Shown one piece after another: positions 36,196 through 60,263 of a stretch of 64,000 nucleotides of DNA. The stretch comes from Artocarpus heterophyllus. Taxonomy: Eukaryota > Streptophyta > Magnoliopsida > Rosales > Moraceae. The translations under genes were made by a program, and so were the position numbers. Numbering within the stretch: the first letter of the stretch is position 1; each line of letters begins with the position of its first letter. The stretch lies in NCBI GenBank assembly GCA_025403435.1, contig CM046330.1:18994239-19058238 (forward strand). Direction: 5' to 3'. The notes below the pieces were generated by a model. It was not told the origin of the DNA. It worked only from the letters and a program-made list of their open reading frames with translations, and did no database searches.

Positions 36196-36207
36196 CGGTA
36201 TCAGAGA
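36196..36207 (+). other. Primer-binding site of T1
   Basis: CGGTATCAGAGA lies four bases after the 5' LTR and resembles TGGTATCAGAGC. The leader that follows (to about 36430) reads like a chromovirus 5' leader and holds no frame. Confidence 0.7.
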
Positions 36208-36589
36208 GGTTTCCATCTCCAACACTCATCACCACACGTCTACCCTAAATCCTCCAAGTAAGTAAATTTTATATATAGGTGTTGATGGACATGTTATGTA
36301 TTTGTGTTTGTATATGTATGTATTAGTAAGACACTATTTCCGTTCCAAGGAGGGATCATGTCTCTAACTCCCCTAATCTACGATGTATTAGTAAAAAACA
36401 ACTATGAACAGCCAAAGTAAGAGGGGTGGACCCCACCGACAAAATTCCAGAATTGGGATTCTAATTTGTTCTTTTGTTTAACTCGGCCCAAATTGTCAAG
36501 GCCTGAACAACTCGACCCATTTCAGCCCAAAACGTTTAGGACTAGCTCAAATTCTGGCCCAACTCGATTTGATCTTCGTACGTTCCCTC

Positions 36590-36806
36590 TACACGTGTCA
36601 AGAACAGTGCTTCATTCTTTGTCTATTTATATGATTATTGTGCATAAAAGCTCCTTTCTCTGAGCTCACACTCTCTCTAATTTTTCATTCTCTTTCTAAT
36701 TCTTAAATCATCTTCCTTCTTTCTAGATCTTCTTTTTTTTCTCTAAAACTCCAAAATTCTCTAACTTTCTATCTCGATTCTTTTCTTTATCTTCCTCTCT
36801 TTTACC
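36590..36806 (+). promoter_or_regulatory. Promoter-like region and CT-rich leader of unit A
   Basis: ACACGTGTCA (an ACGT-core box) is followed about 35 bp later by TATTTATATG and ATTGTGCATAAAAG. A long CTCTCT-rich stretch then leads to the ATG at 36807. The same order (ACGTGTCAT, CATATACAT, ATTGTGCATAGGAG, CT-rich leader) occurs before ORF1 of unit C at 58250-58482. Conservation between copies suggests it came with the module; promoter function is inferred. Confidence 0.5.
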
Positions 36807-37191
36807 ATGGACTCAAAATACCAACACCTAAGAAAGTATATCCCTTCACATTCCTAGAAAGTCCTCAAGAAGAAATACAAGATGAGGATCACTTGATTGT
36901 GGATTCTAATGCTTTTTGGTAGTCCTAGTGATGTGAAGATGCCGATACAAGGAGATTCATCCAAGTGACTTCGATAAGTGTACTTCGCTTGGATTTGTTT
37001 TGGTAAATAGAGAGAGAAAATAAATTTCTATAAGGATGGACTTTCTAAGGAGAACTTGGATGACCTCCATGTTTCTCTTTAGAACCATCCTAATGGATAT
37101 GTCTAAGATGCAATTTCTAAACTCTGGCACAAATTCCATATAGAAAGACAACGTCTCAAGGACATGGTAATTCAAGATCCTATTTGCTAGA
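36807..37191 (+). pseudogene. ORF1 of unit A, unknown protein, degenerate
   Basis: Starting MDSKYQHLRKY, it matches ORF1 of unit C (start 58483). A stop follows at codon 17, with further stops and frame changes. Relative to C, the 114 bp at 58651-58764 (after GTGACTTC) are replaced by GATAAG. This removes the arginine-rich run and the CxxC cysteine cluster. The 3' part (GCAATTTCTAAACTCTGGCAC...) continues the homology beyond the C stop. I do not recognise the family with certainty; see the entry for unit C. Confidence 0.75.
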
Positions 37192-37880
37192 TCCTAAGAA
37201 AACTAGATGAAGAATAAATCGTCGCTCTTTAAAGGCCATCTAAGTGCTTGTTTGTTTGAAATTGTTACAATAGGTGTTTAATAATGTGTGTTCTTTGTCC
37301 TATAAACATTGCCTTGAATTCGGAATAATTGTTGTTTTTAGATTATTACAGTAAGTTTTGAATAATTAGTGTCTCTTTATTTTATTGTTTTCTAAAAATG
37401 TATATATATTGTCTTGTTAGGTATATCACATGTTGTACTGTACCATGTTTGAATTTTCAAAAACTTATCTAGACTTTTCAAGATTCGTGTATTATATTTC
37501 AACAATTCTACACTAGTATGTTGTTTATATCAATTCTCTAGATTCGGTATACATATATCAAAAAGTACATAATTGTGTTAGAATATCTTTTGTCGAATTA
37601 CCTTCCATTGTCAAAAGTTATATAGTTTGAGACTCACTTTTTTGAAAGCTAACCTGAATTTTCATGACTTGTCTGTCTTTTTTTCACCTTCTTACATGCC
37701 CAATATTTTGCTTAGATTATTAGATTACCTGCTCATTACCTACTTGTTTGTCTCTTTCGTCTTTTTACATTTTCATCAACTTTAAAATCCCATTTAGGGC
37801 TCAAGGTTTAGACAAAGTGGGCTTAAAACAAAAAAAAAAACAACAACAAAAAAAGAGTCAACCAGTCATATAAACCAAAC

Positions 37881-38481
37881 ATGTCTACCTCCTATTGCTC
37901 TAGGAAAATAAGAAATGTTTGTCTTTTATGGTTCCAGCCCTAGGAAAGATAAAGTCTACCCAGAAGCCACAAAACACTTAGGACAAAGATTATCATGTAG
38001 AAAGATTAACCTAATTTATGGGGCTGGTAGTTTATGATTAATAGGGAGTGTAGTGACAGCAACTAAGTCTAATGGTGCCAAAGTCATAGGAATTATCCCT
38101 CATCTTTTAGCTGAAGGGAACTTGTGTGAAAAAACCATAGGTAGGGACAATGGAGTTTTGGATATCCCTGAGCATCTTAAAACTATGATCTATAAGTTTG
38201 ACACTTTTGTAGCATTACCTAGTGGTTTAGGCACCCTAAATGAGATATTCATAGTTGCTAGTAGGAATTTATTAGGTATTCACTCTAAACCCTTAGGTTT
38301 CTTGAATGTAAATGGTTTTTATGATAGTCTTTTAAAATTTTTGGATTACGCTATGTAACAAGACTTTATTGTAGAGTCAGGTAGACAGATCTTTGTCACT
38401 GCTTCAAGAGCTAAGGAACTACTAGAAAAAATGCAAATCATCCATCTAGAGTCTGACACTGCAACATCTAAGCTTGATTGA
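37881..38481 (+). pseudogene. LOG-like cytokinin-activating enzyme gene, copy A, disrupted
   Basis: LOG enzymes release active cytokinin bases from their riboside 5'-monophosphates. The start MSTSYCSRK leads, after a frameshift near 37918, to FYGSSPRKDKVYPE, then NLIYGAGSL with a stop. A long clean stretch at 38053-38358 follows: VIGIIPHLL, DTFVALPSGLGTLNEIF and KPLGFLNVNGFYDSLLKFLD. These match the LOG order GSSxG, YGGGS, PGGxGTxxE, LLNVDGYY. The catalytic-motif Glu is kept, PGG is PSG, and the conserved Arg before it is His (CAT 38173-38175). The length of about 200 codons fits plant LOG, but there are no introns, unlike typical plant LOG genes. At least three disruptions make it non-functional. 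Confidence 0.88.
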
Positions 38482-39350
38482 GAGAAGGAAAGCTAGAAAC
38501 GGCCATTGGATTTGAACCTCCACCTGTAATCTTTTAGTTTTGCCTATAACATGAACATTTGCATATATTATATCCCGAATAACCGTTCTCCTCTTCATCC
38601 TATATTTTTTGTGGCATGCTGTTGTTAAAACATTTAGATTCATTATCTTTAATGTTGGGATGGCTGGTGTTACAGAGTATCTGGTACTCTCGAAATGCAT
38701 CCCATTTAAGGTCTGAACTTTTGTTTATTGAAGCTTCAGTATTCTCTATGCATGTATGATTAATATAACTTATTATAGGGAGTACTTTGTACTCTTGAAA
38801 CGTATCCACGTAATATTTGTAATTGTGAAAATGCTCCATATATATATGTATGTATGTTATTTTGTTTAAGTATTTGTATTATAAGAGAGAATGACTGTTT
38901 GTAGGAGAGCCTATAAGCTTGCCAAAGTTATGGGTTCCTTTTGAACTCCTTATTTATTAATTTAATGTACGTTTTTAATATAAATACGTATGTTATCCAT
39001 TTTGTTAGGATCGTGATGTAAGACAAGATGCACAAATGTTTTTCTAACAATATCTTCATCTGATTATAAATAGCAGTTCAAAAAACAATAAAGGGCTGAA
39101 AATGGTATGATCAACTTATGCACTTCGCTGATCATATTCCAAGATCACAATTCGGGGTACAAATATGAAACCTATTAGCAACACTCTTATCGAGAGATTA
39201 AGCATTTAGAATAAGTTTGATATATCAAGTAAATGAATAGAGACAAGGCAACCTACAATGGAGACAAATAATCTTGATGATGTAAAGTTGCCAAGGAAAG
39301 TATAATGGATTGTGATTTTTACATATACCATAGATTTAGAATTTCAAGGA

Positions 39351-40190
39351 CGTGACATTATTAATGGGCATAATTGTGACTAAACTTATTATTAGTGTAC
39401 TAATTAAAATTTTTGTAAAATTTTGTTTCATCTAAGATCTATTTCATATTATTTCTTTCACCTATTTCCAATTTTTCTAAAAGTTCTCCTATATCTATTT
39501 AGCATATTAACCAAAATGCCCTTGAAACTTTTGATTAATTTCCAAAAAATGCCATTTGGCATTATTTGCTACAAAGCCTCAAAAATGATTACAAGATGAA
39601 CATATCCCATCACAAAGATGACCATTTCTCATAATCATAAAACAATGACTAAGGATTTTGCAAGCAAAGTTGTCATTTTACACAATCTTGAGGTTAGATT
39701 TTTCTAAACTAAAACTTTGATTTAAATTTGTGTTTTAGAATAAAAAAATTGTTTTTAATATTTGTGGATGATTATGCAATGTTTTTGAAGCTTTACATAC
39801 TTCCAACTCTATTATGAATAAGTTCTTGAGTTAGTTTTTAAAAAATTTTCAAAATTTTGGTATTAGAATATATGTTGAGCATGAAAATTTGGAAAAAAAA
39901 AAATGGTTTACATGTGTTTTAGCATGATAGTCTATAGTTTTTGCGTATTTTCCAAGTTTTGAGTTTTGGTAAAACAGGATAGAAACAGTTGATCGATAGG
40001 CCGGTTGTAAAGTCCAATTAGGCAGTTTGTAACTTGTCATTTTTTGTCATTTTGTGGTTAGGAAATACTCCAAAGATTATATTTATTAAAAAAAATTAAG
40101 AGTATAAGTTTTCATATTAATGATTGTGGCACACTAATAAAAAATAAATGGTGCATTGACATAACTATAGGTTTATGAATTGAATTTACT
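39351..40190 (+). repeat. Partial LTR of the element C family (3' LTR of unit A)
   Basis: It begins GTGACATTATTAATGGGCAT and follows the 54488 LTR (ATTATTAGTGTAC, CATTTGGCATTAT, GTTGATCGATAGGCC, ATTAATGATTRTGGCACACT) with internal deletions. It stops at about 40190, where T1 pol sequence resumes. The 3' part of the LTR is missing. Confidence 0.82.
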
Positions 40191-40196
40191 ATCAGA

Positions 40197-40463
40197 ATGT
40201 CAACTATCCACAATGTCTTTCATGTCTCAATTCTTAAGAAGTACATCTTAGATCTTACACATGTAATTAAGCCTCAAGTCATCAAGATATGAAAAGATCT
40301 TAGCCATGAGGAGAAGCCGATTGAGATTTTAGACCGAAAAACCAAGACCCTAAGAAATAAAGAACTTGCATTGATTAAGGTCCTTTGGCATAACCACAAT
40401 GTAGAAAAGGCTATATGGGAACGAGAAGAAGAAGTAAAAATCAAGTACCCTCAATTGTTTTAA
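40197..40463 (+). pseudogene. C-terminal end of chromovirus-type pol of T1
   Basis: One frame reads HNVFHVSILKKYI..., then KPIEILDRKTKTLRNKELAL and VLWHNHNVEKAIWEREEEV, ending KYPQLF and TAA at 40461-40463. This is the characteristic end of Ty3/gypsy chromovirus (Tekay/Del) polyproteins, downstream of integrase. It has one in-frame TGA near 40290. Everything upstream of pol is missing. A purine-rich stretch (40464-40502) precedes the 3' LTR. Confidence 0.85.
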
Positions 40464-40502
40464 GTTTTAAGGATGAAACTTTTATAAAACAAAAAGAACA
40501 GT

Positions 40503-43500
40503 TGTAACACCCGCTGTTTTCTTTAATTGACGATATGTAATGTTTAATGATTTTATGCATCAATATGAAAAGAAAAATTATGACTTAGAATCACATTTTG
40601 TGTGATATTTTAGTATGATATTTATGATAATGAAATTTATTTTGAACTAACATCTTTTGTAGTAGATGGACTAAGGAAATTCCAACAACCTAAAGTGCCT
40701 AATGTATGTTTATTACATTTTGTTCGTAAATTGTTTGTTTTGGTGATCTATATGGATTTTATTTATTTGAATGTGATCTTTTGATTTTTATAATTTTTAT
40801 AATTTTTTTGATTCATTTTTTTATCTTTTGAAATTTCTAGAAATTATCTTTTTCAATTTTTAGAAATTATTTTAAATCTTCATATTCTTTCTATATACAT
40901 ATATAATGATGACAATAAATTTTTATTATCATCATAAGCATCTTCAATTACATAAAGGAAAAGTAATTTTAGAATTTTTTGAAAAGTTCTAAAAGTTTTC
41001 ATTTTGACTCCTCAACTTTTGGAAAATTTCACTTTTGCCTTAAATTTTGAAAATTTTTGCAAAAAAGCCCCTAATAATTTCTCTAGCCACAAACCCAAGC
41101 CCCCACATGCCTTCCATCCCTATTTTTAGCTGGTGTCTCCCATTAATGTCCCAAATAATTAACTTATACTAATTATTCTCCTTAACATAGCATTAAAATA
41201 ACTCACCACTACCTATACCTTTTTACCACTACCCATACCTTTTTTCCCTCCTACCCTCTCTTCTTCTACTTTTAAGACCACCAAAAATCTGTAAAGAACT
41301 TCAAAAAAACTTCAGCCTCCTTCCCTTGAGAGAATCCAAGAGAAAACCACAAGAACTCTTAAAGAAAATCCATCCAAAAATCAATTCTAGCACTTGGATT
41401 CAAGAGCTAGCATCTTTAAGCTTTTGTCTTCAAAGTGGTAGGTTTCCTTAACCCCAAATTTTTTTTTTTTGAAATGTTTGTTTATATATATTTAAATATT
41501 TTAGGAGGTAAATCTTTTGATCTTTAAGCCAAATGTTTTGAATTTGTGTGACAAACATGTTAGAGTTTAAGATTTTATGTTCTTGAGCTGTGTCTATTTC
41601 TTACATTTCTGGGATTTGATGAAAAAGATTCTTGAGGATTTGCTTTCATTTTTGAAAATTCAACATCCTAAGCTTTCCAACAAGCTATCATGGGTCTAAA
41701 TCGGAGTTGTATTATACTCTCTATGAATTTCCAAATTTTCAGTTAAAAAGTAGAAAATCTACCAATAGTAAACAACGGTCTTTGAATCGTAAAACGTAAC
41801 AAAAGTAATTATTGTTATCCAAATGAAATAAAATTAAATCTAAAGATATATATAGATGTGTAGTATATTGTACAAAAATTTTGGATTCAAATATACTATT
41901 TTTTATTTGTTTGAGAATTCCTACTAAATGTTGTTCTTAGGGTCCCTAAACTGCCTTTAAATGTGATGATTTGTTTGATGATGCTACAGGATGCGTTTAA
42001 TGCTAAAAAAAATTTTGAACGCTCATTTATGTCTCTAGTTTATGTCTACAAATTTTTAGTGTCAGCATATGTTAGAAATAAAGAAACAAATCATGGAATG
42101 AATGTTGCTCACGAGTTCGGTATTGTTAGTGCAACATTTTTGTAAAAATTGGTATATTTAAAAAATACTTAGAGTGATCAAAATATCATGAAAATAAATC
42201 TGATACTATAACACAGATGTTAAGAATGTTATGCTTAAATTTCAAATCAATTAGAATTTTGTGTGATTTTAGAAAATGCATTGATCATTTTCTGCCCGTT
42301 TGTAGTTTACTACGATAGATTGTTTTTATGACTTCTAAAATGTAGGAAAGATGCTTATACTAGATCAATTTTAATGAAATTAATTTTAGTAGTGTGTTTA
42401 GATTTCTAATATATCTTAGAAAAATTTCAAAGCCATTAGAATTTTAGTGATTTTTATAAAATTTATTTATTGTTATTACCTGAACCAAAATTCTAGCAAC
42501 AAAGTCATGACTTATAGAACATGAAATAATAGCTTAAATTGATCTAATTGTGATAAATTAAATTTGATGATTGTTATAGATGTTTCTAATGTGTGACAAA
42601 AATTTGAAGTCATTTTGAATTTTGTGTGAGTTTTAAAAATTCATAGAATGCTAACTATCTATGTTGTTCTTCCAAAAACGGAGTTGCATTTTAGAAAATA
42701 TAAAAATGTATGTAGACTAATCCAAAAGCCATGAAATTTATTCTCCTGATATGTATGCATGCAATAAGCGTTGTACTAAAATTTCAAAGCTATTAGAATT
42801 TTGTATCATTTTATAAAAATCGTGGAGTGGTAATTGCTGGATTAAAATATTGAACCTGCCTAAAATGTGATAATAGTGTTAGTTTAAGTGGTCAAGTATA
42901 AAATTACTTATTGTAATGATGATGAATGTGATGTTTTAAGTATGCTCTTATATCAAGAATGTTTCTTTTATCACAATGTTTGAATATTAAAGACGTTTGA
43001 AGCACTTAAGTCGTTGAAAGTAGATAGAAAACCATCCACTTGTAAGAGGTTAAGTAAAATTGCTACAAATCATGTAAATACATTCTTACCTGCAACATGA
43101 TTAAGGGTTATGAAAAGTTTTGAGAAATGTTGTGTTATTATGTTATTAATATTTATGCATTTCTCATTCAAAAGATTTCTTTTACCATGTTTTTGAAGAA
43201 CGACTTTTTATAGATGCTGTCAACGTTTTTTTCATGATGCAAAAGACGTTTGCACAAAAATATATGTATATATATGTATCACATAATGAAGATGTTGCAC
43301 ACCTAATGATGATATTTGTCCTGTAAGGTGGACTTATCACGTTTGGTGTGGGATTAGCGACCCCTCTCCTCTCATAACGGCGCACCATAATGATGTTAAT
43401 GGTGTAACTTCAGGGCCCTAAAGCATAAAATGAATGTTTAATATGGAAAAAGGAAAAGGAAAGATACGTTCTTGCAAAGTGTGCTTTATGCACTATGCTG

Positions 43501-44180
43501 ACTATATCAAAGATAAAATGATTCATGCTATGGTTAAAAATTTTTATAATATTTTGCGAGATCACATAATGTACTTACAAAGCTTAATGCTTACATAAGT
43601 TAATCATGTTATAAATAAGGGTAAGGCTATAGCTTTAGATGGAGGATGGAAGGACAAATGTGTGTGCAATGATGGTGGTGTTGGATCACGGAATTACGAT
43701 ATGAAATGAAATAATTACAACACAAATTTAAATTTATTTTGGCAAATTATGGGATGTTTTTAATTATTGGACTGTCGAGTTTGGTTTGTAATAATTCATG
43801 GGCTATAATTTGTCCTCATGGTATATTATTATTATGTTAAACTAACTATTCTGCAGGTTATCAGTTAGCCAAGTACCTTGGGTATTATGTCAGGCTAACC
43901 AAGGAGGAAAATCGTTTAAGGTAAGTATTGATTTTATTTGAAAGATGTGATCCTGAGAAGTGCTAGTAATATACATTTAGAAATAATCCAATTGTTTAAA
44001 AGTAAATTAAAATTTTAATTCATAGGTTCACATGGTAATATAAAATTAATAAAAAAAATTTTACTAAAAATTATGGGTTAATAATTTTATAATACTTACA
44101 AGTTTAGGTTTTCCTATCAAATAATTAAGAGATAAGATGAAAGTTAATAGTTCCTGTGATGTCCATAAGGGGGCATTACA
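40503..44180 (+). repeat. 3' LTR of T1, about 3.7 kb
   Basis: It begins TGTAACACCCGCTG, right after the pol end and purine tract, and ends GGGGGCATTACA. The last 915 bp match the truncated 5' LTR. It contains a degenerate array of about 180 bp (42180-42860). The open frames inside it are short and unconvincing. Confidence 0.85.
42180..42860 (+). repeat. Four degenerate units of about 180 bp within the T1 LTR
   Basis: A block containing AAATTTCAAA..ATTAGAATTTTGTGTGATTTTA recurs with its core at about 42251, 42436, 42615 and 42793, a spacing of 178-185 bp. The units are strongly diverged, so the expansion is old. Confidence 0.7.
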
Positions 44181-45425
44181 ATTATGAAGTTTCAACTCTT
44201 GAAACTCGTGAATTCATTGAAACAATGTGTAATGGAGAATTACTTAATAAAGAACCTGATGAAGCGTTAGATTTTCTATATAACTTAACTGATAACTCTC
44301 AATGCTGGCAACATGGTAATTCTAAATGCTCAATTAGGTCTAATCTTGCTAATGCTCAAAGAAGTGTTCATCAACTTAGTTAAGAAAATGATCTAAATGC
44401 TAGGATTGCATGTTTAACTAAAAAGATTGAAGCCATGGAATGTAGGAATGTTCAGGAACCTAAAATTAAAACTTTATATAGTATTTGTCAAACTCTAGGA
44501 CATTCAACTTATAAATGCCCATTTTTTAAGAAAAAGTCCCATGAACATATAAATTAGACAAATCAATTGGACTTACTTAGGAAGCAATTTCCAATCCACA
44601 TTCTCACACATATAATCCACATTGAAGAAATCATCCCAATTTCAATTGGAGAAATGATCAACCATAATAGCAATGTCAATCACCACCGTTACTTCTACCT
44701 CAAAATTCTCTAAATCTTTGACAATTTCTACAACAATCTCAAAATTCATAATTTCCATTAAATTCGCTAAATTACCAAAGGCCTTCTCAAAATTTTCCAC
44801 CTTCTGAAAATCTTCATTCTCGTGTCAAAACTCTTGAAGACACTTTGCAATCATTCATGCAAGCTCAAAAAGCATGCATTAAAAAACAAGAAGTTCACAA
44901 TACTCACACTACAAAAGACATTCATGAAATTAAAGAGTCTATTTTTAAGCTCACTTCTTCACTTTGCATTCAAGAAAAATACAAATTTTCTGCTCAACAT
45001 GTACATTATCCATCTGTTAATAAAGTTGCCTCTTCTAGTTCACCATCACAACAAGAAACTATTAATCTTGTCACAACTTTTTGAAGTGGAAAAACAATTG
45101 ATAAAACCTTTTTTTTTTAAAAGATCAAAAGGTTAATTAAACTTTAAAAAGTGATGATAAAGTTAATAGTGATAAAGAAAATTCTAAAAAAAAGGTTGTT
45201 TTAAAAGAAAAATTTGTTCCAAAGGTTCTATTTCCTCAAGCTTTGCTTTCAAAAGAGAAGTATGATAAAAATGCTGCAATTTTTGAATTCTTTAAACAAC
45301 TTGAAATTAACATTTCACTTTTAGAGGCAATCAAACAAGTCCCATCTTATGCTAAGTTTTGGAAAGATTTGTGTACAATTAAAAGAAAGCATAATGTGAG
45401 TAAGATTGTATTTTTAATTGAGAGT
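44181..45425 (+). pseudogene. Athila-type gag, degenerate
   Basis: Readable segments are TREFIETMCNGELLNKEPDE and ALDFLYNLTDNSQCW, a hallmark of Athila gag. A knuckle-like ICQTLGHSTYKCPFF follows, then LQSFMQAQKACIKKQE and, near 45320, LEAIKQVPSYAKFWKDLCTI and KRKHNVSK, which leads into the protease. Several stops and frameshifts separate these pieces. The N-terminus is missing because T1 ends at 44180. The frame is interrupted at 45425 by a solo LTR and resumes after 46080. Confidence 0.85.
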
Positions 45426-46071
45426 GTTGGAGGTGTGCTCGGCGTTTTTTCTGAGAACCACCTCCACAACTGTCTGGCCATCATGCTTGGGATCAGTCGT
45501 TGGAAGCCAATTCAAAGCTCCATGCCATCATTTCTCACCAAGGTGCCCCGTGTGGGCTAATTAGCTACCACGTAAGGCCCTCGACTCCTTGAGACAAATG
45601 AAGTGCTTGGGTCGGACTAATAAGGCCTACACCCAAGCAACAACTCACCATAGAAGGTCAACATATGGCCTCATTCTAACCCTCAGATGGAGATTAAACC
45701 TCCCATGGGGATCATGGCACTTGTCACCTACCACTTGACACATCTTGATATGACACACGAGTTGCAGGGCAAGCCCACCTAACATCTGGATCAAGTAGTA
45801 GCCTATAAATTAAGCATATTTGCTGCATCTCAAGGTAACATGCACTTTTCCCACCTAACCTTGCTCCTGAACTCTGCCGAATAGGTATCTGACTTAAGCG
45901 TCAGAGAGCCTTTGGCTGGCACCACACCGATGCCCCTGATCTTTGAGGCATTCTTCTTCCTCTTGTGTAGGTCCACCTTGGGAGGCCGAAACAAGCAAGA
46001 AGAGCCGTCCGACCACCGTGCATAGCCACATGTGGTATTGATCTCTAGTGAAACAAAGCTAAGCATCAACA
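45426..46071 (+). mobile_element. 646-bp solo LTR with GAGAG target duplication
   Basis: The element starts TGTTGGAGGTGTGCTC and ends AAGCATCAACA (inverted TGTTG/CAACA). It is flanked by GAGAG at 45421-45425 and 46072-46076. A TATAAATTA box at about 45805 and a following leader-like stretch (GACTTAAGCGTCAGAGAG...) indicate plus orientation. The leader style resembles Tat/Ogre-group Ty3/gypsy LTRs, which is tentative. Its higher GC content contrasts with the AT-rich gag around it. Confidence 0.9.
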
Positions 46072-46080
46072 GAGAGTGTT

Positions 46081-46943
46081 AGTTCCATTATTTAATATGA
46101 CTTATCACCTAAGTTCAAAGATCGAAGTTGTCCCAAAATTTCCTGTATCACAGGAAACACTTAAATTGAACATGTATTACTAAATTTTGGTGCTAGTGTC
46201 AACCTTTTGCCTTATTCTGTTTACCAATAATTAGGTTTAGGTGGACTTAAGCCAACATCTGTCACACTTTAGTTAGCTAATCGTTTTGTAAAAATTCCAA
46301 AAGTTGTTTTGAGGATGTATTATTTAAAATTGATAAATTTTGCTACACAGTAGATTTTATTATTTTGGATATACAACTTGTTGCTAGTTCAAATATTAAA
46401 ATTCATGTCATTTTAGGTCATCCATTTCTTGCTACTTCCAATGCTTTAATTAATTGTGGAAACGGAGTACTAAAATTGCCTTTTTGAAGTATGACTTTAG
46501 AATTCAACGTGTTTAACATGGCGTAATCTCTTTCTGGAAAGTGTGAAGTGAACTTTGTTGAGGACAGTGCATCTGGAACATCTGTTGATCCTTTAGCTGA
46601 CTTGGCCAATACCTTTGATTCAAATGTCCTATTAAAAGTTGAAAACTATCCTATGAATGTTTTAACTAATGAAACTCTTGAAGTTGAAAATTCAAATTTC
46701 AAACCTGAATTTGGAAATGATGTTTTTGAAGAAGAACCTAAAGATGAATTTATGGGTGAACCTATGGATGAATTTATGTGTGAACTCATGGATGAAGATG
46801 AGTTTAAGAAAAGATTTTTTGAAGCATCTAGTAGTTTAACTTTTTGGGAATGTTATCTCTTGGGAAGGTTTAGGGCAACTATTCCACCAGTCATCAACCT
46901 CGTTGATTCTGACTCCAAAGATGATATTACAAATATAGTTTAA
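46081..46943 (+). pseudogene. Athila-type aspartic protease and downstream acidic region
   Basis: The retropepsin-like segment reads LGASVNLLPYSVYQ, GLKPTSVTLXLANR and, after frame changes, FIILDIQ and KIHVILGHPFLATSNALINC. The catalytic Asp precedes the GASVNLLP motif only if a one-base shift is allowed. An open acidic stretch at 46548-46943 (KDEFMGEPMDEFMCELMDED) follows and ends TAA. In Athila, reverse transcriptase would come next; none is visible downstream. Confidence 0.8.
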
Positions 46944-47289
46944 TGCATGTATTATGTTTTTGTTTTTATTTCTATATTTCTTTGTTTTTGTTTTTTTGTA
47001 TTTCTGTGACTTTGCTTTCGTGTGTTGTATTTTTATTTTCTTTGTTTTTGCTAAAATTCAGAAAAATAATTTAAGAAGTTCATTTAAAGTGGCTAGGGGT
47101 TATGAAAGAAATAATCAAGTTTGATTAATTGGTATTTTATACCAACAGCCTCTAGAAATGTATTTAAGTGAAATGATTAAAGTGAAAATTTTTTATTCTT
47201 AAATATTTTTATTAAACTAAAAAAAATTTAAAATCACAAAAATATTTTTTTCTTTGTAAATAATTGTTGTTGTTTTTCACCATTTTTTT
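46944..47289. other. T-rich non-coding stretch before unit B
   Basis: It is dominated by TTTGTTTTTG runs. I see no coding motif and no RT homology. Confidence 0.6.
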
Positions 47290-49044: not shown

Positions 49045-50873
49045 GATTTTGATCTTTTTCTCTAAACTCTTTGATCTTTTAGTTTTACCTACATCATGTT
49101 TCTTTATATTATGTTTATTTTTCTTTGTATGTTTTGAATAACCACTCTTGTATATATATGTTGTTACTCTTTCTACTTAATCTTGTTAAACATTAAGGAT
49201 AGTGTTCAATTTAGGATGATGGAGATGGGTTTGTGTCAAAATTTTTCAAATTTATGCCAAAGTTTTTAAAGTTTGAGTCTGTTTTTGTGTGTTTAAAATG
49301 AGAGTTTTTTTAAAAAAACCAAGCATATAAAAAAAGCCCCAAAACATGAAAAATTAAAAAAAAAAAGAAAAAAAGAAAACAATGGTGTGCTGTTTGTATA
49401 ACTTTTAGATTATTGTTTTAGTGTCGAGATGGCTTAGTGAAGGAGCTTGTCTTGAAGCGCATCTCTATTTGGTGCAAGAATGTCATCTTGCATATATTTT
49501 CATTTTTTCTTATATTCTCCATGTTGTGTGCTTGCACACATGTTTAGAATAGCTAAGTTATGGAGTACTTAGCATTTTTGAGAGTGTCCTAATCATATTT
49601 GTAACATATTTCACTCTGTTGAGTTTGTCAGCATTTGCATCTTTTAAGGGGAAAAAAACCAAAAATTGAAAAATCTTAAAAAAAATAAAAAAATTTGAAA
49701 AACCTAATAAAAGTTTTGCAAATTTTATTTTCTCTGTTTTTTTATTTTTAAAGTGCCTCCTATCTGATGAAGAAACATGGTTATATCATGGCTTGTTATA
49801 AGATTTAGATATTGTTTAAGCTTATATTAATTTCTTGTGTTAGCATCGTATTTAGATTGATTTTTCCCAATATATGAGCACTTAATCTTAGACTTTGGTT
49901 TGTTATACTAATTTAAAGATTGTTTATGTTAATATAATTTGGTTTATTTTTATAAAATCTTATGATTTGGTTGAATCCCTTTCAAGGCAAAATCCTAGAT
50001 AATACTAAGTTGAGGACGTAATTTAAGCCATCGTTGGATCATTTGAGCCTTTCAAGTTTACCTTTATACATTTTATATCCTTAGTTACCCTGTTGTGCTT
50101 AATGTTTTACTCTTTTTCTCACTCACAAATTTTTAGCCTAGCTTTTTTAATGATTTCATGCCCTTTCTTTTTACTTTTCATTCCTAAGATATATGATCGA
50201 TTTGGATGTATTTTGGGTTATTATAATGTTATGGGACGATGGGAAGGGTTATGAAAAGAAATTTGTTTATTCTATAAGTCTATAAATTTAAAAAAAAATT
50301 TCAAAAAGAAAAATAATACTAATGAAAAAAATGAATAAAAGTTTAAAAAAAAAACAATAAAAAGTGGATGACGAGTGAAAGTTTACTTCAAGTCTGGATT
50401 TGTTACTTGGGAAATAATTTGTAAATTTTAAAGATCCAAGAATAATGTAAGTGTTTTATGGATGAATTAAGCTTCAAATTTATCTTTCATCCTACTTTTT
50501 CACCGTGGCCTTACATTATAAGCTGAATAAAGTCTTAATAGCCTTTAATTTATTGTTATTCTACATTGATGGAGAGAAGAATGAAGAAGAAACTTGTAAG
50601 ATTTTGTTAAAATAAATCTGGTTTGTATACAATGATTAGTGATAGAATAATACATACACACAGAAAAATCCATCTTAAATGTGAGACATATTCTTGAAAT
50701 ATAACGTAAACTTGAATAATATTTGCATTTTATTTTAAGCCATGATTTTAAAACAACCCCTAAGGACGTTTTGTAAGGAGTCACAAGCTTTTGAAAAATC
50801 AATCATTTGGTCTATTTTATTTTTTTATCGCTTTAGTTACTTGGGACTTGCAATAAGTTGGTTAAGAGTATGG
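49045..50873 (+). other. Non-coding tail of the Athila-type element after LOG copy B
   Basis: About the first 600 bp match the tails of units A and C (the AGATGGCTTAGTGAAGGAGC block with ...TGAAGCGCATCTC, and the following GGAGTACTTAGC region). The rest is AT-rich with no frame. It ends with TTACTTGGGACTTGCAATAA, the kind of sequence that precedes the 3' LTR in Athila-type non-autonomous elements. Confidence 0.6.
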
Positions 50874-54487: not shown

Positions 54488-56963
54488 TGTGACACCCGTT
54501 ATTTTTCTAACAGGCATAATGGTAATTAAATTAATTATTAGTGTACCAATTTAAAATTTGTCTTATCTAAAATCTATTTTATACTATTTATTTCTGCCTA
54601 TTTTTAAATTTCCTAAAATTTACTATACCTATTTATTATATTTACCGATATGCTCTCAGAACTTCTAATTAATTATGAAAATACCATTTGGCATTATATG
54701 AGCTAAAGTCTTCGAAGGAGACATAATGCATCAAACTCTTACCTGCTTGTCTCCCATTCTCTAATCTTTTCTTTTTTCAACCGAGCCCTCCAACAAAGAA
54801 AAACATATCTTTCTTTTCTTTTCTCCATGAAACACTCAGCTCTCTCTCTTCCTCTTTGAAACATCTCCCACTCTCTTTCTTCTTCTTCTTTCTTCTACTC
54901 TCTAAGTATGAGAAACCCAGCTCCATGTTGTTTGAAAGTCTCCGTGCCAAAGTTGAACATGAGTTTAATCCCTTGATTTGATGACTTAAATTTTTCAATG
55001 AGATTTTGTGGTAAGATTTTTAGAAAACGAATATGGTTTTATCTACCATCTTCACTCTAGATTTACTCATTTAATTTGCTGTATAATTGAGTTTCATGAG
55101 ATATTGACACACACCTATCTTGTTGTTCTTATAGCATATGAGTAGAAAATATTGGTTTTAAATGAACTTTGAATTTGTAACCTTTGATTGCGATTGGGTA
55201 TATCAATTCAAGGAAGTTTGTTTATCTACATCTTAGTATGTTTTCAAAGCGTCTTAAACGAGTTTTATGCATTAAAAACTAATTTGGAGTAGAAAAATCG
55301 TTTTAAAACATAATCTGTCCACCTTGGGACGAACTTGGTAGAACCCAGTTCTAAAGGGTCGCGGTTGACCACGTATGGTATAGTGCGATCGACTGCTCTA
55401 TGCAGAATTGGCCAGGCAACAGCCAACAAGTTCAGCAGGCTGAATTGGCAGTTCAGTAGGTGGAACATCGACAGTCCAAACTCAGCAGCTTAACAGGCCG
55501 AACATCGGCAGTCCGAACTCAATAGTTCAGAAGGCCGATGGCTGAACAATATCGGCAGGCTAAACTTTGAGACCGGTAGGCCAACAGAAGGTCCAAAAAT
55601 AACAGTTTTGTTCAATAGGCTAGAAACAGTTGATCGATAGGCCAATCGGGCAGTCTAAACACACCTATTTTTTATTGTTCTATGTTACGCAATGTTCCAA
55701 GGATTTCATATTAATGATTATGGCACACTAATAAGAATAGATTGTAAATTAACATGATTATAGAATAGGAATTAAGTTAAAGTATAGCTATTTTATACGT
55801 CGTAGGATAACAAAGTACTTGGAGCTTATGTGATGAGCTTGGTATCGTGAGCTAAAAGTTATCGACATGGTATTTGTCAAGAGGTAGGGAATCTATTACT
55901 CATCTTTTGTGAGGTTTTCATGGAATTAAAATTGGTTGTTTGTTTGCAAGATATATATGTATGTTGAACTACTATTATATGAATATCAAATATGAACAAT
56001 GATATAAACTCGTCCTATATTGTATAGTGAGAAATATATTGATTTGATATATGTTGTTGTAAATTGAGAAGCATGGTTAGGAATATTAACTCTACAAATA
56101 CTGATTGACTATTGAGGAATGGTAAGACGTGAAGAAGGTGGCGGTTACGACCTTGGGAACGAATACCCTAATAGGTAAATTAGGAGGAAGGTGACGATGC
56201 TCCCTTAGGTTGAAAGTCCCATAATGCACTGTACAGGAATTGACTTGATGAGGATCTAGGGCTTGTTGTCCCCTCACCAAAACACCCTTAGAATGTATGG
56301 AGTGTGGTCAAACACTCCTATTCGGGTTTCAATGAGTTGAGTGATAAATACTCCATTGGAACGTGGATACCTAGGAACATTAATGGACTGTAATATTTAT
56401 ATATATGTATATGTATGGAACTCAGTAATGATTAATGTAAGGTATCCATGAAATATGATCATAATGAATCTCATAAGATGAATAATGAATAAGAACTAAC
56501 TAACCATGTAGGTTTTGATGTGGCAATGATAAAAACCTAAAGGTGAGTTATGGTTTTCTCTATTGAGAATGTTGTCACTCATTTTCCTATATTTCTATCT
56601 TTTTTCAGGACTCACCAAGTGTGAGGTGGCTACAAGAATATACATGAGGAAGCTATGTAGCTGTATAACATTGGATTTGCTTCATTTGTCAAGAATGTCC
56701 ATCATGATAATGTAAGCATTGTGTGTTACTTTCTGAGATTGTATTAAGATTGTGTTGAGGGTCGGAATGATGATGATGACAGTTTTATATTATTAAATTT
56801 AAGGTGTTACATTAAACTGTGGTTTAATTGTTTTTTATATTTTTATTTCGATTTTGAGAGTTTTCATTTAAGTCATGGGCAAATTTCTTTGATGTTTTAT
56901 TTTTATTTTTTGATCTTTATTTAGTTTATTAAAAACTATTAACCTTCACTTAGGCGCGTTATA
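54488..56963 (+). repeat. 5' LTR of element C
   Basis: It begins TGTGACACCCGTTATTTTTC and ends GGCGCGTTATA, where GTTACA would be usual. It is followed by AATTTT and the primer site. A GC-rich stretch of GGCAGTTCAG/GGCCGAACATCGGCAG words lies at 55430-55640. The first 250 bp match 63702-63946. Confidence 0.88.
55430..55640 (+). repeat. GGCAG/GGCCGA word cluster in the element C LTR
   Basis: Loose repeats such as AATTGGCAGTTCAGTAGG, AACAGGCCGAACATCGGCAG and CAGAAGGCCGATGG recur through about 200 bp. They resemble the GGCAGGCCGAT repeats of the copia element at 11262-11374, although the two LTR families are otherwise unrelated. Confidence 0.65.
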
Positions 56964-56970
56964 AAATTTT

Positions 56971-56982
56971 TGGTATCAGAGC
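56971..56982 (+). other. Primer-binding site of element C
   Basis: TGGTATCAGAGC, complementary to initiator tRNA-Met, lies 7 bp past the LTR end. Confidence 0.9.
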
Positions 56983-58101
56983 CTAGGTTCAGTTAACCTA
57001 GGGAGTATAGCACCACTTTAAAAATCTGTTTTCGATATGGTTTTAAAGGTAAATTTTTAATGTCATCATCAAAATGAACTTTCATATTGATTTATATAGT
57101 CTAGGAGAATGTAACATGGAACGGAGGCCCTAGAATGAAAGTATTAATGTTTATGTAGGAACGATAATTGTATGGAATGAATTATGTGTAGATTGATTGC
57201 GAGAGATTCTTATAGATACAAGGAATTAAGAGCCTTTTATCTTGTGAGAAATAATAAGAAATATAAGGTTTAAGTTGTTGATTTCAAAGTTTGGCATAGA
57301 TGTGCTAAATTCTTCATAATTAATTCAAACCTATGTAGTGCCTATGTGTGGACTCGATTGAGTACTTAAGTGTCGATAACTTTTCTTGAAAGTTTTATTT
57401 ACATAAGGAATATGAGTTAAGTTTAGAATCTATAGTATTGAACCTTGAGAGAGATAAACGTTAGTCTTTTAGTCTGTTGAGACTGTAAAAAGGCAAAGAA
57501 TGTATGAATCTTAAGGTTGGAATATTTCTATTGTTTACATTGTATTTAAGTAGATATAATATGAAGTAACCAATAGAAGTTTCCTTAAGTAAATCATAAT
57601 ACTTAAGGCATTTGTAATGATTTTAGACCTTTACGATGAAAGGTTTAACTTTTAGATGCTTAGATGTGAATCTCTTAGTTACTTGAGGTTTTAGTAAATG
57701 AGGAAATTAAAGATTGAATACGTGGGATGATGAAGATAGTAAATGTCCTTAAGTAGTAACATCAATGGCCTCTGCTCATTAGAGGCCATTAATGTGGCCT
57801 AAGTTAGAAGATAGAAAGTGTATTGATTTCAAGGTTAGTCACATTTAAACCCTTGGTAGTGTTAATAATGAATATATATTAACAAATACTGAGTATTAAG
57901 GATAAGATAAGAGTGTATGCATTGGTCAACAAGGTTTTGATTAAAAACAAATTATTTAAGTTACAAGAGGATTTTGTTATTATGGAACGATTTGGATAAT
58001 ATTATGGGGAAATTCTAATTTTTATCAAATCAAGTTTTGTCATTTATTTTGGTCAATTCTGTTTTAAGTGGGCTTTGAATTGGGTTTAAGATCTATACAA
58101 G
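56983..58101 (+). other. Non-coding leader of element C where gag would be expected
   Basis: About 1.1 kb has no open frame longer than a few dozen codons and no gag or zinc-knuckle motif on either strand. I recognise nothing in it. Confidence 0.6.
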
Positions 58102-58224
58102 TTGGGTTTCAATTCCATACTTGTCATTTAACTCGTTTCAAATGTGTTAAGGCTCGAAATAACCCGAGCCATTTTAGTTTAGAACATTTGGGCTTAGTCC
58201 AAATCCTGAATCAGTTCGATCCAT

Positions 58225-58482
58225 ACTGTCTCTCGCACGTGGTCTCTATACGTGTCATCTATAGCGGTTTAATCATTGTCTACATATACATCTATTGTGC
58301 ATAGGAGCTCATTTCTTCAAGCTCACTCTCTCTCTAAACTTGTCATTCTCTCTCTAAATCACAAATCATCTTCCTTCTCTCTAGAACTTCTTCTTTCTCT
58401 CTCTAAAAGAAGAAGGATTTCTAGGATTCTACAACTTGCTATATCTATGTTCCTTTTCTATTCACCCTTCTTTCATCTCATT
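58225..58482 (+). promoter_or_regulatory. Promoter-like region and CT-rich leader of unit C
   Basis: CACGTGGTC and ATACGTGTCATC (ACGT cores) are followed by CATATACATC, ATTGTGCATAGGAG and a long CTCTCTCTCTAAA-type leader, ending at the ORF1 ATG at 58483. The same arrangement precedes ORF1 of unit A. The open frame reaches upstream to 58276, but the pyrimidine-rich part is not conserved as protein. Confidence 0.5.
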
Positions 58483-58869
58483 ATGGACCCAAAGTACCAA
58501 CACCTGAGAAAGTATTTTCCATCACTTTCCCAAAAGATTCTTAGAAAGAAATACAAAACTAAGATCACTCGATTGTGGATTCTTATGCATTTTGGCATCC
58601 CTGGTGATGTGAGGATGTTGATAGAGGGAAAGATCCATTCGAGTGACTTCATTCAAGACGTTGGTTTACCAGGTATAGGTACTAGTCGTAGTGTGATGAG
58701 AAGAAGAGCTCGTGCCATCGCGGTCACTTGTAATAAATGTGGACGGCAAAATTGTAATAGTAAATGTATTTCACTTAGTTTTGTGCCTATAAATAGAGAG
58801 GATAAAATAAGGTTTTGCAAGGATAGATTTTTTGAGGAGAACTTAGATAACCTCAATCCTTCTCTTTAA
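58483..58869 (+). pseudogene. ORF1 of unit C: basic Cys-rich small protein of unknown function, truncated
   Basis: 128 codons are open from MDPKYQHLRKYFPSLSQ to a TAA at 58867-58869. The N-terminal third is basic (SQKILRKKYKTKITR), then IPGDVRMLIEGKI, then an arginine-rich run VMRRRARAIAV and a cysteine cluster CNKCGRQNCNSKC, a plausible zinc-binding nucleic-acid contact. The tail FCKDRFFEENLDNL follows. Homology with B continues past the stop to about 58976 (GAIFKLWPKFYAERQ), so the original protein was longer. I do not recognise the family. The order of arginine run then cysteine cluster resembles the small nucleic-acid-binding proteins of some filamentous plant RNA viruses, but that is only a shape similarity. 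It lies 0.8 kb upstream of the LOG-like gene and may once have been co-transcribed with it. Confidence 0.7.
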
Positions 58870-59663
58870 GATCACCTTAGTTGATATGTTTAAGGAGCTA
58901 TCTTTAAACTGTGGCCTAAATTCTATGCAGAAAGACAACATCTCAGGAATATGCTATTTCAAGTTCCTATTTGCTAAATCACAAGAAAACTAGATGGGGA
59001 ATAAGTCATCACTCTATAAAGGTTGTTCAGTCTTTACCTGTTTGAAATCATTTTAGTTGGTTTTCAATAATCTGTCTTTCTCTGTGGTAAAAAAAATTGT
59101 TTTGTACTCAAAATATTTGCCCTTGTATTCAAAATAATTGTGATTATTAGATTGACACAGTAAGTGTTAGTGTCTTTTTTAATTTATGGTTTTCTTTAAA
59201 ATATATATTTATAATAAAATATATTATCCTATCAGACAATTCACATGCAGTACTGTAACATGTTTGATATTTTGAAACATATTTAGACATTTCGAGATTT
59301 GTGTCTCAAATTTCAAAAGTTTTACAGTATTTGTCGTTTATATTACTTTTCTAGATTCGGTGTATATCTGTTAAAAGGTCTATAGTTGTGCCAGAGTATT
59401 TTTTGTCAAGCCATTCTCAATTGTCAAAAGTTATACAGTTTGTGTCTAACATTTTTTAAAAAGTAAATAAGACTTTCCATAAATTGTCAATCGCTTCTTA
59501 CTTTCTTACTTGCACAATATTTTGTTTAGACCTTTGAATTGCCTTTTCATTACCTACTTGTCTGTCTCTTTAATCCTTTTGTGTATTCCTCATCTTTAAA
59601 ATCTCATGTAGAACCCCAAGTTAAATGGAGTAGACATAAAGCAATCACTCATACAAACCAAAT
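58870..59663 (+). other. Spacer between ORF1 and LOG of unit C
   Basis: Apart from the remaining ORF1 homology to about 58976, this is non-coding. It contains repeated CAAAAGTTATACAGTT-like words (about 59316, 59374 and 59415). The same words occur in the spacers of A (about 37500-37640) and B (about 48171-48245). Confidence 0.65.
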
Positions 59664-60263
59664 ATGTCTACCTTCTAGTCTACCAAGAAAAAAAATGATG
59701 TTTGTATCTTTTCTGGTTCCAGTCCAGGAAAAGATAAAGTATATATAGAAGCCGCAAAAAACTTAGGATAAGCCTTAACATATAGAAAGATTAACATAAT
59801 CTATGGGGGTTATAGTATGAAAATGATGGGAAATATGACGATAGCAGCTAGATCTATTGATGCCACAGTTGTGGGGATTTGGCCTCGTATTCTAGCTAAA
59901 GGAAACCTTTGTAAGGAAACTATAAGTAAGAAAAAAGGAGTTATGGACGTCCCTAGGTGTCTTAAAGTCATAATCGATAATTTTGATGCGTTTATAGCAT
60001 TACCTAGTGGTCTAGGTACCCTTTAGGAAATATTTGTGATTGCTAGTAGGAATTTATTGGGTACTCACTACACCCTTGGGACTTTTAAATGTAAATGGTT
60101 TTTATGATGGTCTTTTAAAATTTTTAGATTACACTGTGAAAGAAAACTTCATTGTAGAATCGAGAGACAAATCTTTGTTACTGCTTCAACAGTTGAGGAA
60201 TTGTTAGATAAGATGCAAATCATCCATCCGGAATCCGACACTACAACATCCAAGCTTGAATAG
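59664..60263 (+). pseudogene. LOG-like gene, copy C, disrupted
   Basis: From MSTF, with a stop at codon 5, it reads VCIFSGSSPGKDKVYIEAAK and, after another stop, TYRKINIIYGGYSMKMMGN. An open run follows (59817-60026): VVGIWPRILAKGNLCKETIS, then MDVPRCLKVIIDNFDAFIAL and PSGLGTL, a TAG, and EIFVIASRNLLGTH. A one-base loss near 60070 shifts the frame; LNVNGFYDGLLKFLDYTV follows. LOG landmarks GSSPGK, GGYS (for GGGS) and the signature Glu are readable. PGG is PSG, as in A, and the Arg before it is Cys (TGT 59958-59960). It is intronless and ends TAG at 60261-60263. Confidence 0.88.

What the first reader, a model, noticed from the sequence alone, without database searches (positions are those of the whole stretch)
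36430..60263. A LOG-like cytokinin-activation gene paired with an unknown ORF travels in three retroelement copies
Seen: the same intronless two-gene order (basic Cys-rich ORF1, about 0.7-0.8 kb spacer, LOG-like gene, conserved tail) occurs at 36.8-38.5, 47.3-49.0 and 58.5-60.3 kb, in three different LTR-element settings. Known: LOG enzymes convert cytokinin riboside monophosphates to active bases, and plant LOG genes normally have introns. Inferred: a retroelement lineage captured a LOG-like cDNA (or took the pair from another mobile source) and amplified it. An intact relative could alter host cytokinin levels.
Basis: partly seen in the sequence, partly recalled or inferred. Interest (0 to 1): 0.88.

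Follow-up and report, generated by a model that had tools for sequence, protein, structure and literature searches.

The report
Jumping genes carrying hormone-activation cassette
In this plant genome, two families of jumping genes carry the same pair of extra genes, one related to plant-virus proteins that block RNA silencing and one related to the enzyme that activates the growth hormone cytokinin, and this pair would likely help the elements spread in dividing cells.

Summary
Three decayed copies of one two-gene module lie at 36.5-38.8, 47.3-49.1 and 58.1-60.6 kb. The genome holds many more: of the 150 best-scored LOG-domain places, 124 have no stop. Eleven of 13 copies fetched with their flanks sit between long terminal repeats, in two different LTR families. 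Type A is Athila-like: gag-protease + ORF1 + LOG, no polymerase seen. Type B holds ORF1 + LOG only. Outside the module the families share only a weak leader match, so the pair has moved between LTR families. ORF1 belongs to a large plant family related to carlavirus/allexivirus nucleic-acid-binding proteins (some are silencing suppressors in print); in one contig from elsewhere it follows an Athila-type integrase. Between subfamilies both genes show purifying selection (dN/dS 0.07-0.21 for ORF1, 0.18-0.31 for LOG). Type A LOG keeps the catalytic Arg; type B LOG has lost it. LOG (YgdH) domains in Ty3/gypsy elements of Citrus and Populus are already in print, so this is a new variant of a known kind. 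I found no report of the virus-type partner gene, the polymerase-less carriers or the module exchange. Cytokinin activity and silencing suppression are predictions, not shown.

The parts
35287..36191 (+). Copy 1 (type B, old): 3' part of its 5' LTR, ending GTTACA; partner of 43265-44180 (85%)
36197..36206 (+). Copy 1: primer-binding-site core GGTATCAGAG (degenerate form of the type B site)
   Evidence: sequence read; tRNA-iMet assignment recalled
36807..37208 (+). Copy 1: ORF1 (NABP-like) remnant, Cys-rich part deleted
37921..38490 (+). Copy 1: LOG-like remnant
   Evidence: tblastn E 3.5e-41 (AtLOG3) and 2.1e-41 (Musa LOG)
39375..44180 (+). Copy 1: 3' LTR (starts TGTGAC), interrupted
   Evidence: 68-75% partial matches to type B LTRs, and 85% to 35287-36191
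34465..35281 (+). Copy 2 (type A): piece of Athila-like LTR
   Evidence: 70%
44182..47278 (+). Copy 2: gag-protease remnant (44182-45428 and 46072-47278)
   Evidence: 83% and 76% to L041, whose ORFs match Retrotrans_gag and Asp_protease_2
47520..47786 (+). Copy 2: ORF1 (NABP-like) remnant
48463..49041 (+). Copy 2: LOG-like remnant, frameshifted
   Evidence: tblastn E 1.1e-27
49376..50863 (+). Copy 2: type A tail between LOG and 3' LTR
   Evidence: 68% to L042
50871..52936 (+). Copy 2: 3' LTR, Athila-like
   Evidence: 68-69% to type A LTR
54488..56966 (+). Copy 3 (type B): 5' LTR, starting TGTGACACC (aligned pieces 54488-54894 and 55882-56966)
   Evidence: 70-79% to L024 LTR; 91% of 54488-54730 to 63702-63943
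56971..56983 (+). Copy 3: primer-binding site TGGTATCAGAGCC
   Evidence: sequence read; tRNA-iMet assignment recalled
58483..58869 (+). Copy 3: ORF1, open for 128 codons, then stopped (full-length type B copies 173 aa)
59700..60262 (+). Copy 3: LOG-like remnant with stops
   Evidence: tblastn E 9.4e-25; 4 stops in the frame from 59667
60572..62089 (.). Probable foreign insertion inside the tail of copy 3
   Evidence: tail homology breaks off at 60571 and resumes at 62090
63702..64000 (+). Copy 3: start of 3' LTR (runs off the window), after GAGGACGAAATTTCTTTAATGGGG

Best explanation
The three window copies are decayed members of two LTR-retrotransposon families without a polymerase gene that carry the same two-gene cargo, a gene related to viral nucleic-acid-binding proteins (ORF1) and an intronless LOG-like gene, which would likely act as a host-manipulation cassette, ORF1 predicted to blunt RNA silencing and LOG predicted to raise active cytokinin where the element is expressed. 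Shown: anatomy, LTR/TSD/PBS/PPT, the shared module in two LTR families, selection on both proteins between subfamilies, and the state of the catalytic residues. Inferred: an Athila-type Ty3/gypsy ancestor held the pair behind pol (the env-like place); type A lost pol; the module was then transferred into the type B element; both are moved in trans by polymerase-bearing relatives. Untested: expression, enzyme activity, silencing suppression and benefit to the element. In type B the LOG has lost the catalytic Arg and changes faster than ORF1 of the same copies, so there it may be on the way out while ORF1 is kept.
For: LTR pairs flank 9 of 10 type B places fetched with 10-kb sides (83.9-99.95% identical) and 2 of 3 further modules fetched with 8-kb sides (L030 96.0-97.4%, L036 96.5%; L031 without a clear pair). 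Exact 5-bp target duplications: 4 of 9 type B (CGAAA, GATGA, AAAAC, TAACT), two more at 4 of 5 bases; L036 of type A (CACCT; L030's 5' end lay outside the stretch). No gag or pol ORF in the type B internal region read (L023/L024). Type A: gag (1.4e-21, 5.9e-23) and aspartic protease (9e-7, 9e-6) but no ORF of 120 aa or more between protease and ORF1 or between LOG and the 3' LTR. Of 140 gag-protease places, 94 have a LOG place downstream on the same strand within 15 kb (81 at 2.3-3.3 kb); 2 have one upstream or on the other strand. Of 86 Athila-type integrase places 0 lie within 12 kb of 246 module places. Type A and B align from ORF1 to just past LOG (58.9%), with a weak 92-nt leader match. 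NG86 dN/dS between subfamilies: ORF1 0.07-0.21, LOG 0.18-0.31. Type A and B LOGs form one clade, 100/100, in a tree with 49 of 120 listed hits. Arg kept in 8 of 8 type A and L031, Asn in 6 of 6 type B; that Arg and the motif Glu are the proposed catalytic residues of CgLOG, and Ala changes at the active site nearly abolish activity (PMC4979012, passages). ORF1 family: 14 of 15 hits carry PF01623; L046 ORF1 exceeds the Viral_NABP cut-off (34.2 vs 23 bits) and follows an integrase (2.4e-16). A carlavirus and some allexivirus relatives suppress silencing (PMC3689765, PMC12115993, passages).
Against: No expression or activity data. Canonical LOGs read MHxRKAxM; the Lys after the Arg is replaced in all 15 full-length element LOGs and in 103 of 114 listed hits, so substrate or activity may differ. 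Type B LOG lost the Arg, which speaks against a need for cytokinin in that family. Within groups LOG dN/dS is higher (type B 0.37-0.63, type A 0.13-0.71; most YN00 values higher still) and, as copies die after insertion, within-group values cannot be told from neutral decay. ORF1 of type B falls below the Pfam cut-offs (16.3 vs 23) and its Cys spacing differs from carlaviruses; one carlavirus relative (CVB p12) did not suppress silencing in the tests cited in PMC3689765 (passage). LOG was not seen in L046, whose contig ends about 1 kb after ORF1. One gag-protease copy (L045) has neither module nor polymerase. The ORF1 model was poor (pLDDT 65).
Confidence: 0.55

Rival explanations
1. The LOG-like protein is no longer a cytokinin enzyme; it works as another nucleotide hydrolase or nucleotide sensor of the same fold that serves the element, for instance by acting on host signalling nucleotides.
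For: The Lys of the RK pair is replaced in all 15 element LOGs while Arg and PGGxGTxxE mostly stay in type A; element LOGs lie in a clade apart from canonical plant LOGs (60 rows, 99/94; inner clade of 52 rows, 100/97).
Against: Closest solved structure is Arabidopsis LOG3 (E 3.1e-57 for type A); nothing found points to another substrate.
Confidence: 0.25
2. Passenger genes: ORF1 and LOG were picked up by chance and ride along without benefit to the element.
For: Catalytic Arg lost in type B LOG; higher dN/dS of LOG within groups; one gag-protease copy (L045) lacks the module.
Against: dN/dS 0.07-0.31 between subfamilies for both genes; the pair is shared by two LTR families, and relatives of both genes occur in many plants.
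Confidence: 0.12
3. Endogenous plant virus: an integrated virus brought ORF1 (virus-type) and LOG.
For: ORF1 matches viral NABP families.
Against: LTRs, PBS, PPT and 5-bp target duplications; the type B internal region read holds no other long sense ORF; 42 and 39 pattern stretches in IMG/VR gave no ORF1 relative.
Confidence: 0.04
4. Ordinary host LOG genes duplicated in tandem or as single retrocopies, with LTR elements nearby by chance.
For: LOG is a plant gene family; canonical peanut genes mostly have 7 exons (PMC13257298, passages).
Against: Same module between LTR pairs on many contigs, gag-LOG distance of 2.3-3.3 kb in 81 of 140, target duplications.
Confidence: 0.01

Closest known systems
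Ty3/gypsy elements with a YgdH (LOG) domain in Citrus sinensis, C. clementina and Populus trichocarpa (PMC9289625, abstract and section 12 read; it cites Steinbauerova et al. 2011, not read)
   Same: LOG-family domain as an additional gene in plant Ty3/gypsy LTR retrotransposons
   Different: Those were found by anchoring on reverse transcriptase; the section read names no NABP partner. Here the carriers lack polymerase, LOG is paired with an NABP-like gene, and the pair occurs in two LTR families
Orchid Ty3/gypsy elements with an AlkB RNA demethylase (PMC9289625, abstract and section 12)
   Same: LTR element keeps an enzyme domain similar to plant proteins, proposed to counter host control
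   Different: Other enzyme; large (25 kbp) elements
Carlavirus/allexivirus cysteine-rich nucleic-acid-binding proteins (PMC3689765, PMC12115993, passages)
   Same: Basic motif followed by a four-Cys cluster; Pfam PF01623/PF05515
   Different: Cys spacing C-x2-C-x4-C-x3-C rather than C-x2-C-x9-C-x4-C; 173-184 aa rather than about 11-15 kDa; carried by an LTR element
Plant LOG enzymes (Arabidopsis LOG3, PDB 2a33)
   Same: Homology over nearly the whole length, PGGxGTxxE, catalytic Arg in type A
   Different: Intronless, RK pair changed, Arg lost in type B
Non-autonomous plant LTR elements with gag only or without genes (TR-GAG, LARD; recalled)
   Same: LTRs, PBS, PPT, no polymerase
   Different: Carry a conserved two-gene cargo
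Acutely transforming retroviruses with a captured growth gene (recalled)
   Same: Works like: retroelement carrying a growth-promoting host gene
   Different: Not related; kept for long evolutionary time, in plants

Membership tests
LTR retrotransposon | Direct LTRs with TG..CA ends | tested here: met
   9 of 10 type B places and 2 of 3 further modules
LTR retrotransposon | Target-site duplication | tested here: met
   exact 5 bp in 4 of 9 type B pairs and in L036; two more at 4 of 5; the rest truncated or not determined
LTR retrotransposon | Primer-binding site and polypurine tract | tested here: met
   TGGTATCAGAGCC and AAGGGGGG in type B; TTTTTGGCGCCGTTG and TTGGGGGGTG in type A; tRNA assignment recalled
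Autonomous Ty3/gypsy (Athila/Tat) element | gag and protease | tested here: met
   type A only: PF03732 1.4e-21 and 5.9e-23, PF13650 9e-7 and 9e-6; lineage name Athila from recall
Autonomous Ty3/gypsy (Athila/Tat) element | reverse transcriptase and integrase in the same element | tested here: not met
   no such ORF in the copies read; 0 of 86 integrase places within 12 kb of 246 module places, all capped lists
Cytokinin-activating LOG enzyme | Sequence homology over full length | tested here: met
   2a33 E 3.1e-57 (type A), 6.5e-43 (type B); TIGR00730 over cut-off
Cytokinin-activating LOG enzyme | PGGxGTxxE motif | tested here: met
   13 of 15 full-length element LOGs intact at all scored positions; one type A (L036) has Ser for Pro, one type B (L016) Asp for Gly
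Cytokinin-activating LOG enzyme | Catalytic Arg (Arg99 of CgLOG) | tested here: inconclusive
   met in 8 of 8 type A and L031, not met in 6 of 6 type B
Cytokinin-activating LOG enzyme | Phosphoribohydrolase activity on cytokinin nucleotides | not testable with these tools
   needs an enzyme assay
Host LOG gene (canonical plant gene) | Several introns | tested here: not met
   each of the 150 best-scored places covers at least 121 of 131 domain positions in one frame; intron-split genes would score lower, so host LOGs may be missing from that list
Carlavirus/allexivirus NABP | Pfam profile over curated cut-off | tested here: inconclusive
   L046 ORF1 34.2 vs 23 bits; L024 ORF1 16.3 vs 23; 13 of 17 members match PF01623 at E<=0.01
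Carlavirus/allexivirus NABP | Basic motif plus zinc-finger-like C-x2-C-x9-C-x4-C | tested here: not met
   basic KRRAK-type motif present, Cys spacing C-x2-C-x4-C-x3-C
Carlavirus/allexivirus NABP | Suppression of RNA silencing | not testable with these tools
   needs an assay
YgdH-bearing Ty3/gypsy elements in print | LOG domain inside a Ty3/gypsy element | tested here: met
   type A gag-protease plus LOG between LTRs

The most novel reading that the evidence does not exclude
Plant retrotransposons evolved a portable host-manipulation cassette, a silencing suppressor of viral type joined to a hormone-activating enzyme, that passes between unrelated LTR families, a plant counterpart of oncogene-bearing retroviruses that makes its host's meristem cells divide and keeps its own RNA unsilenced.
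Probability: 0.3. Interest if true: 0.9.

Novelty: new variant of a known kind. Interest (0 to 1): 0.66.

Why it matters
The origin and function of most additional genes in plant LTR elements are unknown. Here both cargo genes have testable predicted functions, and young copies with both frames open exist (LTRs up to 99.95% identical). If the predictions hold, transposons act on a plant hormone and on the silencing pathway with proteins of their own. It also warns that counts of plant LOG genes may include retroelement genes: two Populus hits labelled LOGL10 (P0023, P0032) fall in the clade that holds the element LOGs.

Tried and rejected
Host LOG exons were not found: the 104-aa and full-length canonical queries listed 150 places each, capped, in which I recognised no intron-split gene, and the 49-aa query did not complete. 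So a tree of element LOGs against this plant's own LOGs is missing; canonical LOGs of Arabidopsis, Musa and Dioscorea stood in.

A retroviral-type splice for LOG was considered. The spacer is T-rich (38-45%) and a GTAAGT donor lies in 6 of 6 type B but 0 of 4 type A/L031 spacers: not supported as a shared feature. An internal promoter before ORF1 was considered: CACGTGG and ACGTGTC about 245 and 231 nt before the ATG in 8 of 9 type B genome copies printed and in window copy 3; the ninth (L027) has neither, window copy 1 has one CACGTG, one type A copy (L030) has a CACGTG at about -310, L036 and L031 none: prediction only. The ORF1 structure model was poor (pLDDT 65, pTM 0.32), so no fold search was run. 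IMG/VR gave no ORF1 relative and one weak LOG hit, L047, not followed. NF058542 (LOG equivalog) is below cut-off for element LOGs, but so it is for canonical Musa LOG, so it says nothing. I first called type B LOG 'relaxed'; its within-group dN/dS (0.37-0.63) overlaps that of type A (0.13-0.71), so that claim was dropped. Literature: the search for the Pfam names of ORF1 listed 2 papers, on other subjects by title; searches for LOG or YgdH with retrotransposons gave PMC9289625 as the one relevant report that I recognised. The library lacks most subscription papers, among them Steinbauerova et al. 2011.

Full report
WHAT IS IN THE WINDOW. The two-gene module is real. Self-comparison places it at 36453-38790, 47302-49112 and 58102-60571. 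An Arabidopsis LOG finds all three LOG remnants (E 3.5e-41, 1.1e-27, 9.4e-25; best of 20 shuffles 0.26), and an ORF1 from elsewhere finds all three ORF1 remnants. All three are dead copies: ORF1 of copy 3 is open for 128 codons, and no window copy has a full-length LOG frame.

THE GENOME COPIES. The window lies at G000:C4:18994239-19058238 of a 985-Mb assembly. ORF1 DNA of copy 3 gave 40 scored places out of 1977 first-look candidates, 39 of them at 87-88%. The Pfam LOG domain gave 150 scored places out of 4846 candidates; each covers at least 121 of 131 positions in one frame, and 124 of 150 have no stop. Only the best candidates are scored, so these are lower bounds, and intron-split host genes may be missing. 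I fetched 10 of the 40 ORF1 places with 10 kb on each side, 10 of the 150 LOG places as short modules, chosen for high score (so biased to intact ones), and 8-kb sides for three of these.

TYPE B. In 9 of the 10 ORF1 places the module lies between direct repeats (long terminal repeats, about 2.0-2.5 kb where uninterrupted) that are 83.9-99.95% identical. With recalled rates of 7e-9 to 1.3e-8 per site and year, ages run from about 0.02-0.04 to 7-13 million years. The tenth (L011/L012) had no such pair in the stretch. Ends are TGTGACACC...TTACA. Five-base target duplications are exact in 4 of 9 and match at 4 of 5 bases in two more. The primer-binding site reads TGGTATCAGAGCC and the polypurine tract AAGGGGGG. 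In L023/L024 the internal region is about 4.2 kb and holds ORF1 (173 aa) and LOG (216 aa); no gag or pol ORF was seen. Both ORFs are full length in 6 of the 10 places (L014, L016, L018, L020, L024, L026).

TYPE A. Around L030 and L036 the LTR pair is a different one (L030 96.0-97.4%, L036 96.5% identical; TGATGAG...GACCA; target duplication CACCT for L036; site TTTTTGGCGCCGTTG, Athila-like by recall). Ahead of ORF1 lies a gag-protease frame (Retrotrans_gag 1.4e-21 and 5.9e-23, Asp_protease_2 9e-7 and 9e-6), broken by a stop in one copy and a shift in the other; no ORF of 120 aa or more lies between protease and ORF1 or between LOG and the 3' LTR. An integrase in L042 lies beyond the 3' LTR and belongs to another element. 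Window copy 2 is a type A element (gag-protease 44182-47278, module 47296-49246, tail 49376-50863, LTR 50871-52936). Of the 140 best-scored gag-protease places (2035 candidates), 94 have a LOG place downstream on the same strand within 15 kb, 81 of them at 2.3-3.3 kb; the control (upstream or other strand) is 2 of 140. The 207 LOG places used were merged by hand. Of the 46 without, I could read one (L045): protease runs after about 150 nt straight into the LTR, without module or polymerase. Both ORFs are full length in 4 of the 10 chosen modules (L030, L031, L033, L036). L031 has a type-B-like module, but no clear LTR pair was found within 8 kb.

ONE MODULE, TWO LTR FAMILIES. Type A and type B align from ORF1 to about 110 nt after LOG (58.9% over 2004 columns), with a weak 92-nt match in the leader; beyond that only short low-identity matches appear on the same strand. 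L030's 5' LTR also holds 1.2 kb of type B LTR in inverse orientation, which I read as a nested insertion. The LOG proteins of both types form one clade (100/100) inside a clade of 52 rows (100/97) with LOG-like proteins of other plants; the tree used the 15 full-length element LOGs, 49 of 120 listed hits and 4 solved LOGs. So, as far as these samples show, the pair moved as a unit between LTR families in the line leading to this plant; the direction (A to B) is inferred.

ORIGIN. ORF1 finds 15 relatives alone and 855 with its alignment (120 listed), in Xanthoceras, Populus, Acer, Hibiscus, Rhamnella, Orobanche and unnamed assemblies; clusters of up to 566 member sequences suggest repeats there too. 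14 of the first 15 carry PF01623 (carlavirus NABP). Of 17 members scanned here, 13 match PF01623 and 11 PF05515 at E<=0.01. One contig filed under a bacterial MAG (L046, 3330 bp, coverage 4.3, in my view plant contamination) has an integrase ORF (rve 2.4e-16, H2C2 1.4e-12) followed by ORF1 at 34.2 bits for Viral_NABP (cut-off 23). That puts ORF1 in the env-like place behind pol of an Athila-type element; LOG was not reached, as the contig ends. An ORF1 (P0146) and a LOG (P0056) have the same longest contig length, 8723, which suggests but does not prove one contig. In this genome integrases of that type have frames of up to 1788 aa, but 0 of 86 scored places (19549 candidates) lie within 12 kb of 246 module places (207 LOG, 39 ORF1, a few of them the same module). 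The carriers examined are thus non-autonomous and possible helpers are present; trans-mobilisation is inference.

SELECTION AND CATALYSIS. NG86 dN/dS between subfamilies is 0.07-0.21 for ORF1 (one pair undefined) and 0.18-0.31 for LOG; many dS values exceed 1, so these are rough, and YN00 failed for most of these pairs. Within groups LOG is higher: 0.37-0.63 in type B (ORF1 of the same copies 0.08-0.43) and 0.13-0.71 in type A; YN00 gives mostly higher values (0.50-0.76 for type B LOG where it ran) (only full-length ORFs; L007 left out as a duplicate place; pairs with fewer than 12 differences not printed). The catalytic Arg is kept in 8 of 8 type A and in L031 and replaced by Asn in 6 of 6 type B; the neighbouring Lys is changed in all 15 and in 103 of 114 listed hits; PGGxGTxxE is intact in 13 of 15. 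In CgLOG that Arg and the Glu are the proposed catalytic residues, and Ala changes at the active site nearly abolish activity (PMC4979012, passages). Type A LOG is therefore predicted active, type B predicted inactive.

MECHANISM. Relatives of ORF1 in carlaviruses and allexiviruses bind nucleic acid, and several suppress RNA silencing (PMC3689765 and PMC12115993, passages); [quoted passage not shown] LOG enzymes are important for shoot and root meristem activity (PMC3866579, passages). A retroelement that damps silencing and favours division of the cells from which the germ line arises would gain on both counts. This is inference; no activity was measured.

WHAT IS KNOWN. A YgdH (LOG) domain in Ty3/gypsy elements of Citrus and, with a laxer filter, Populus is in print (PMC9289625, abstract and section 12, citing Steinbauerova et al. 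2011, which I could not read). A review and a survey of additional ORFs gave no match for YgdH or LOG (PMC7264820, PMC11963269; term searches only). I found no report of the NABP partner, the polymerase-less carriers or the module exchange, within an open-access library only.

Noticed in passing
window 1-18320: Ty1/copia-like elements (by eye) in a repeated, partly tandem order with open stretches of pol at 12969-16270; not studied.
   Followed up: no
L017 79-4214 and 5852-10000: Two type B modules in tandem with repeated LTR-internal order, as expected from recombination between LTRs.
   Followed up: partly
L045: A type A gag-protease frame that runs after about 150 nt into the LTR, without module or polymerase.
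   Followed up: partly
L040 (upstream of L030): About 1.2 kb of type B LTR in inverse orientation inside the 5' LTR of a type A element: nested insertion.
   Followed up: no
L046: A contig filed under Candidatus Nomurabacteria that holds plant-type Ty3/gypsy integrase and ORF1; probably contamination of the bin.
   Followed up: yes
window 62656-63400: A 369-bp tandem duplication (96-99%) inside the tail of copy 3.
   Followed up: no
L023, about 245 and 231 nt before ORF1, and the same place in 7 other type B copies: CACGTGG and ACGTGTC boxes with a TATA-like stretch near -198 in most; a possible internal promoter.
   Followed up: partly
L043 (downstream of L031): ORFs that look like Helitron Rep/helicase, by eye.
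   Followed up: no
L011 2166-3639: Athila-type integrase, broken into frames, about 6.4 kb upstream of a type B module; no ORF1 follows it there.
   Followed up: partly
L047: IMG/VR contig with a weak LOG-like hit (38%, E 8e-6).
   Followed up: no
P0020, P0023, P0032, P0055 (Populus): Proteins labelled LOGL10 or hypothetical in Populus share the changed RK pair of the element LOGs; possible retroelement genes counted as host LOGs.
   Followed up: partly
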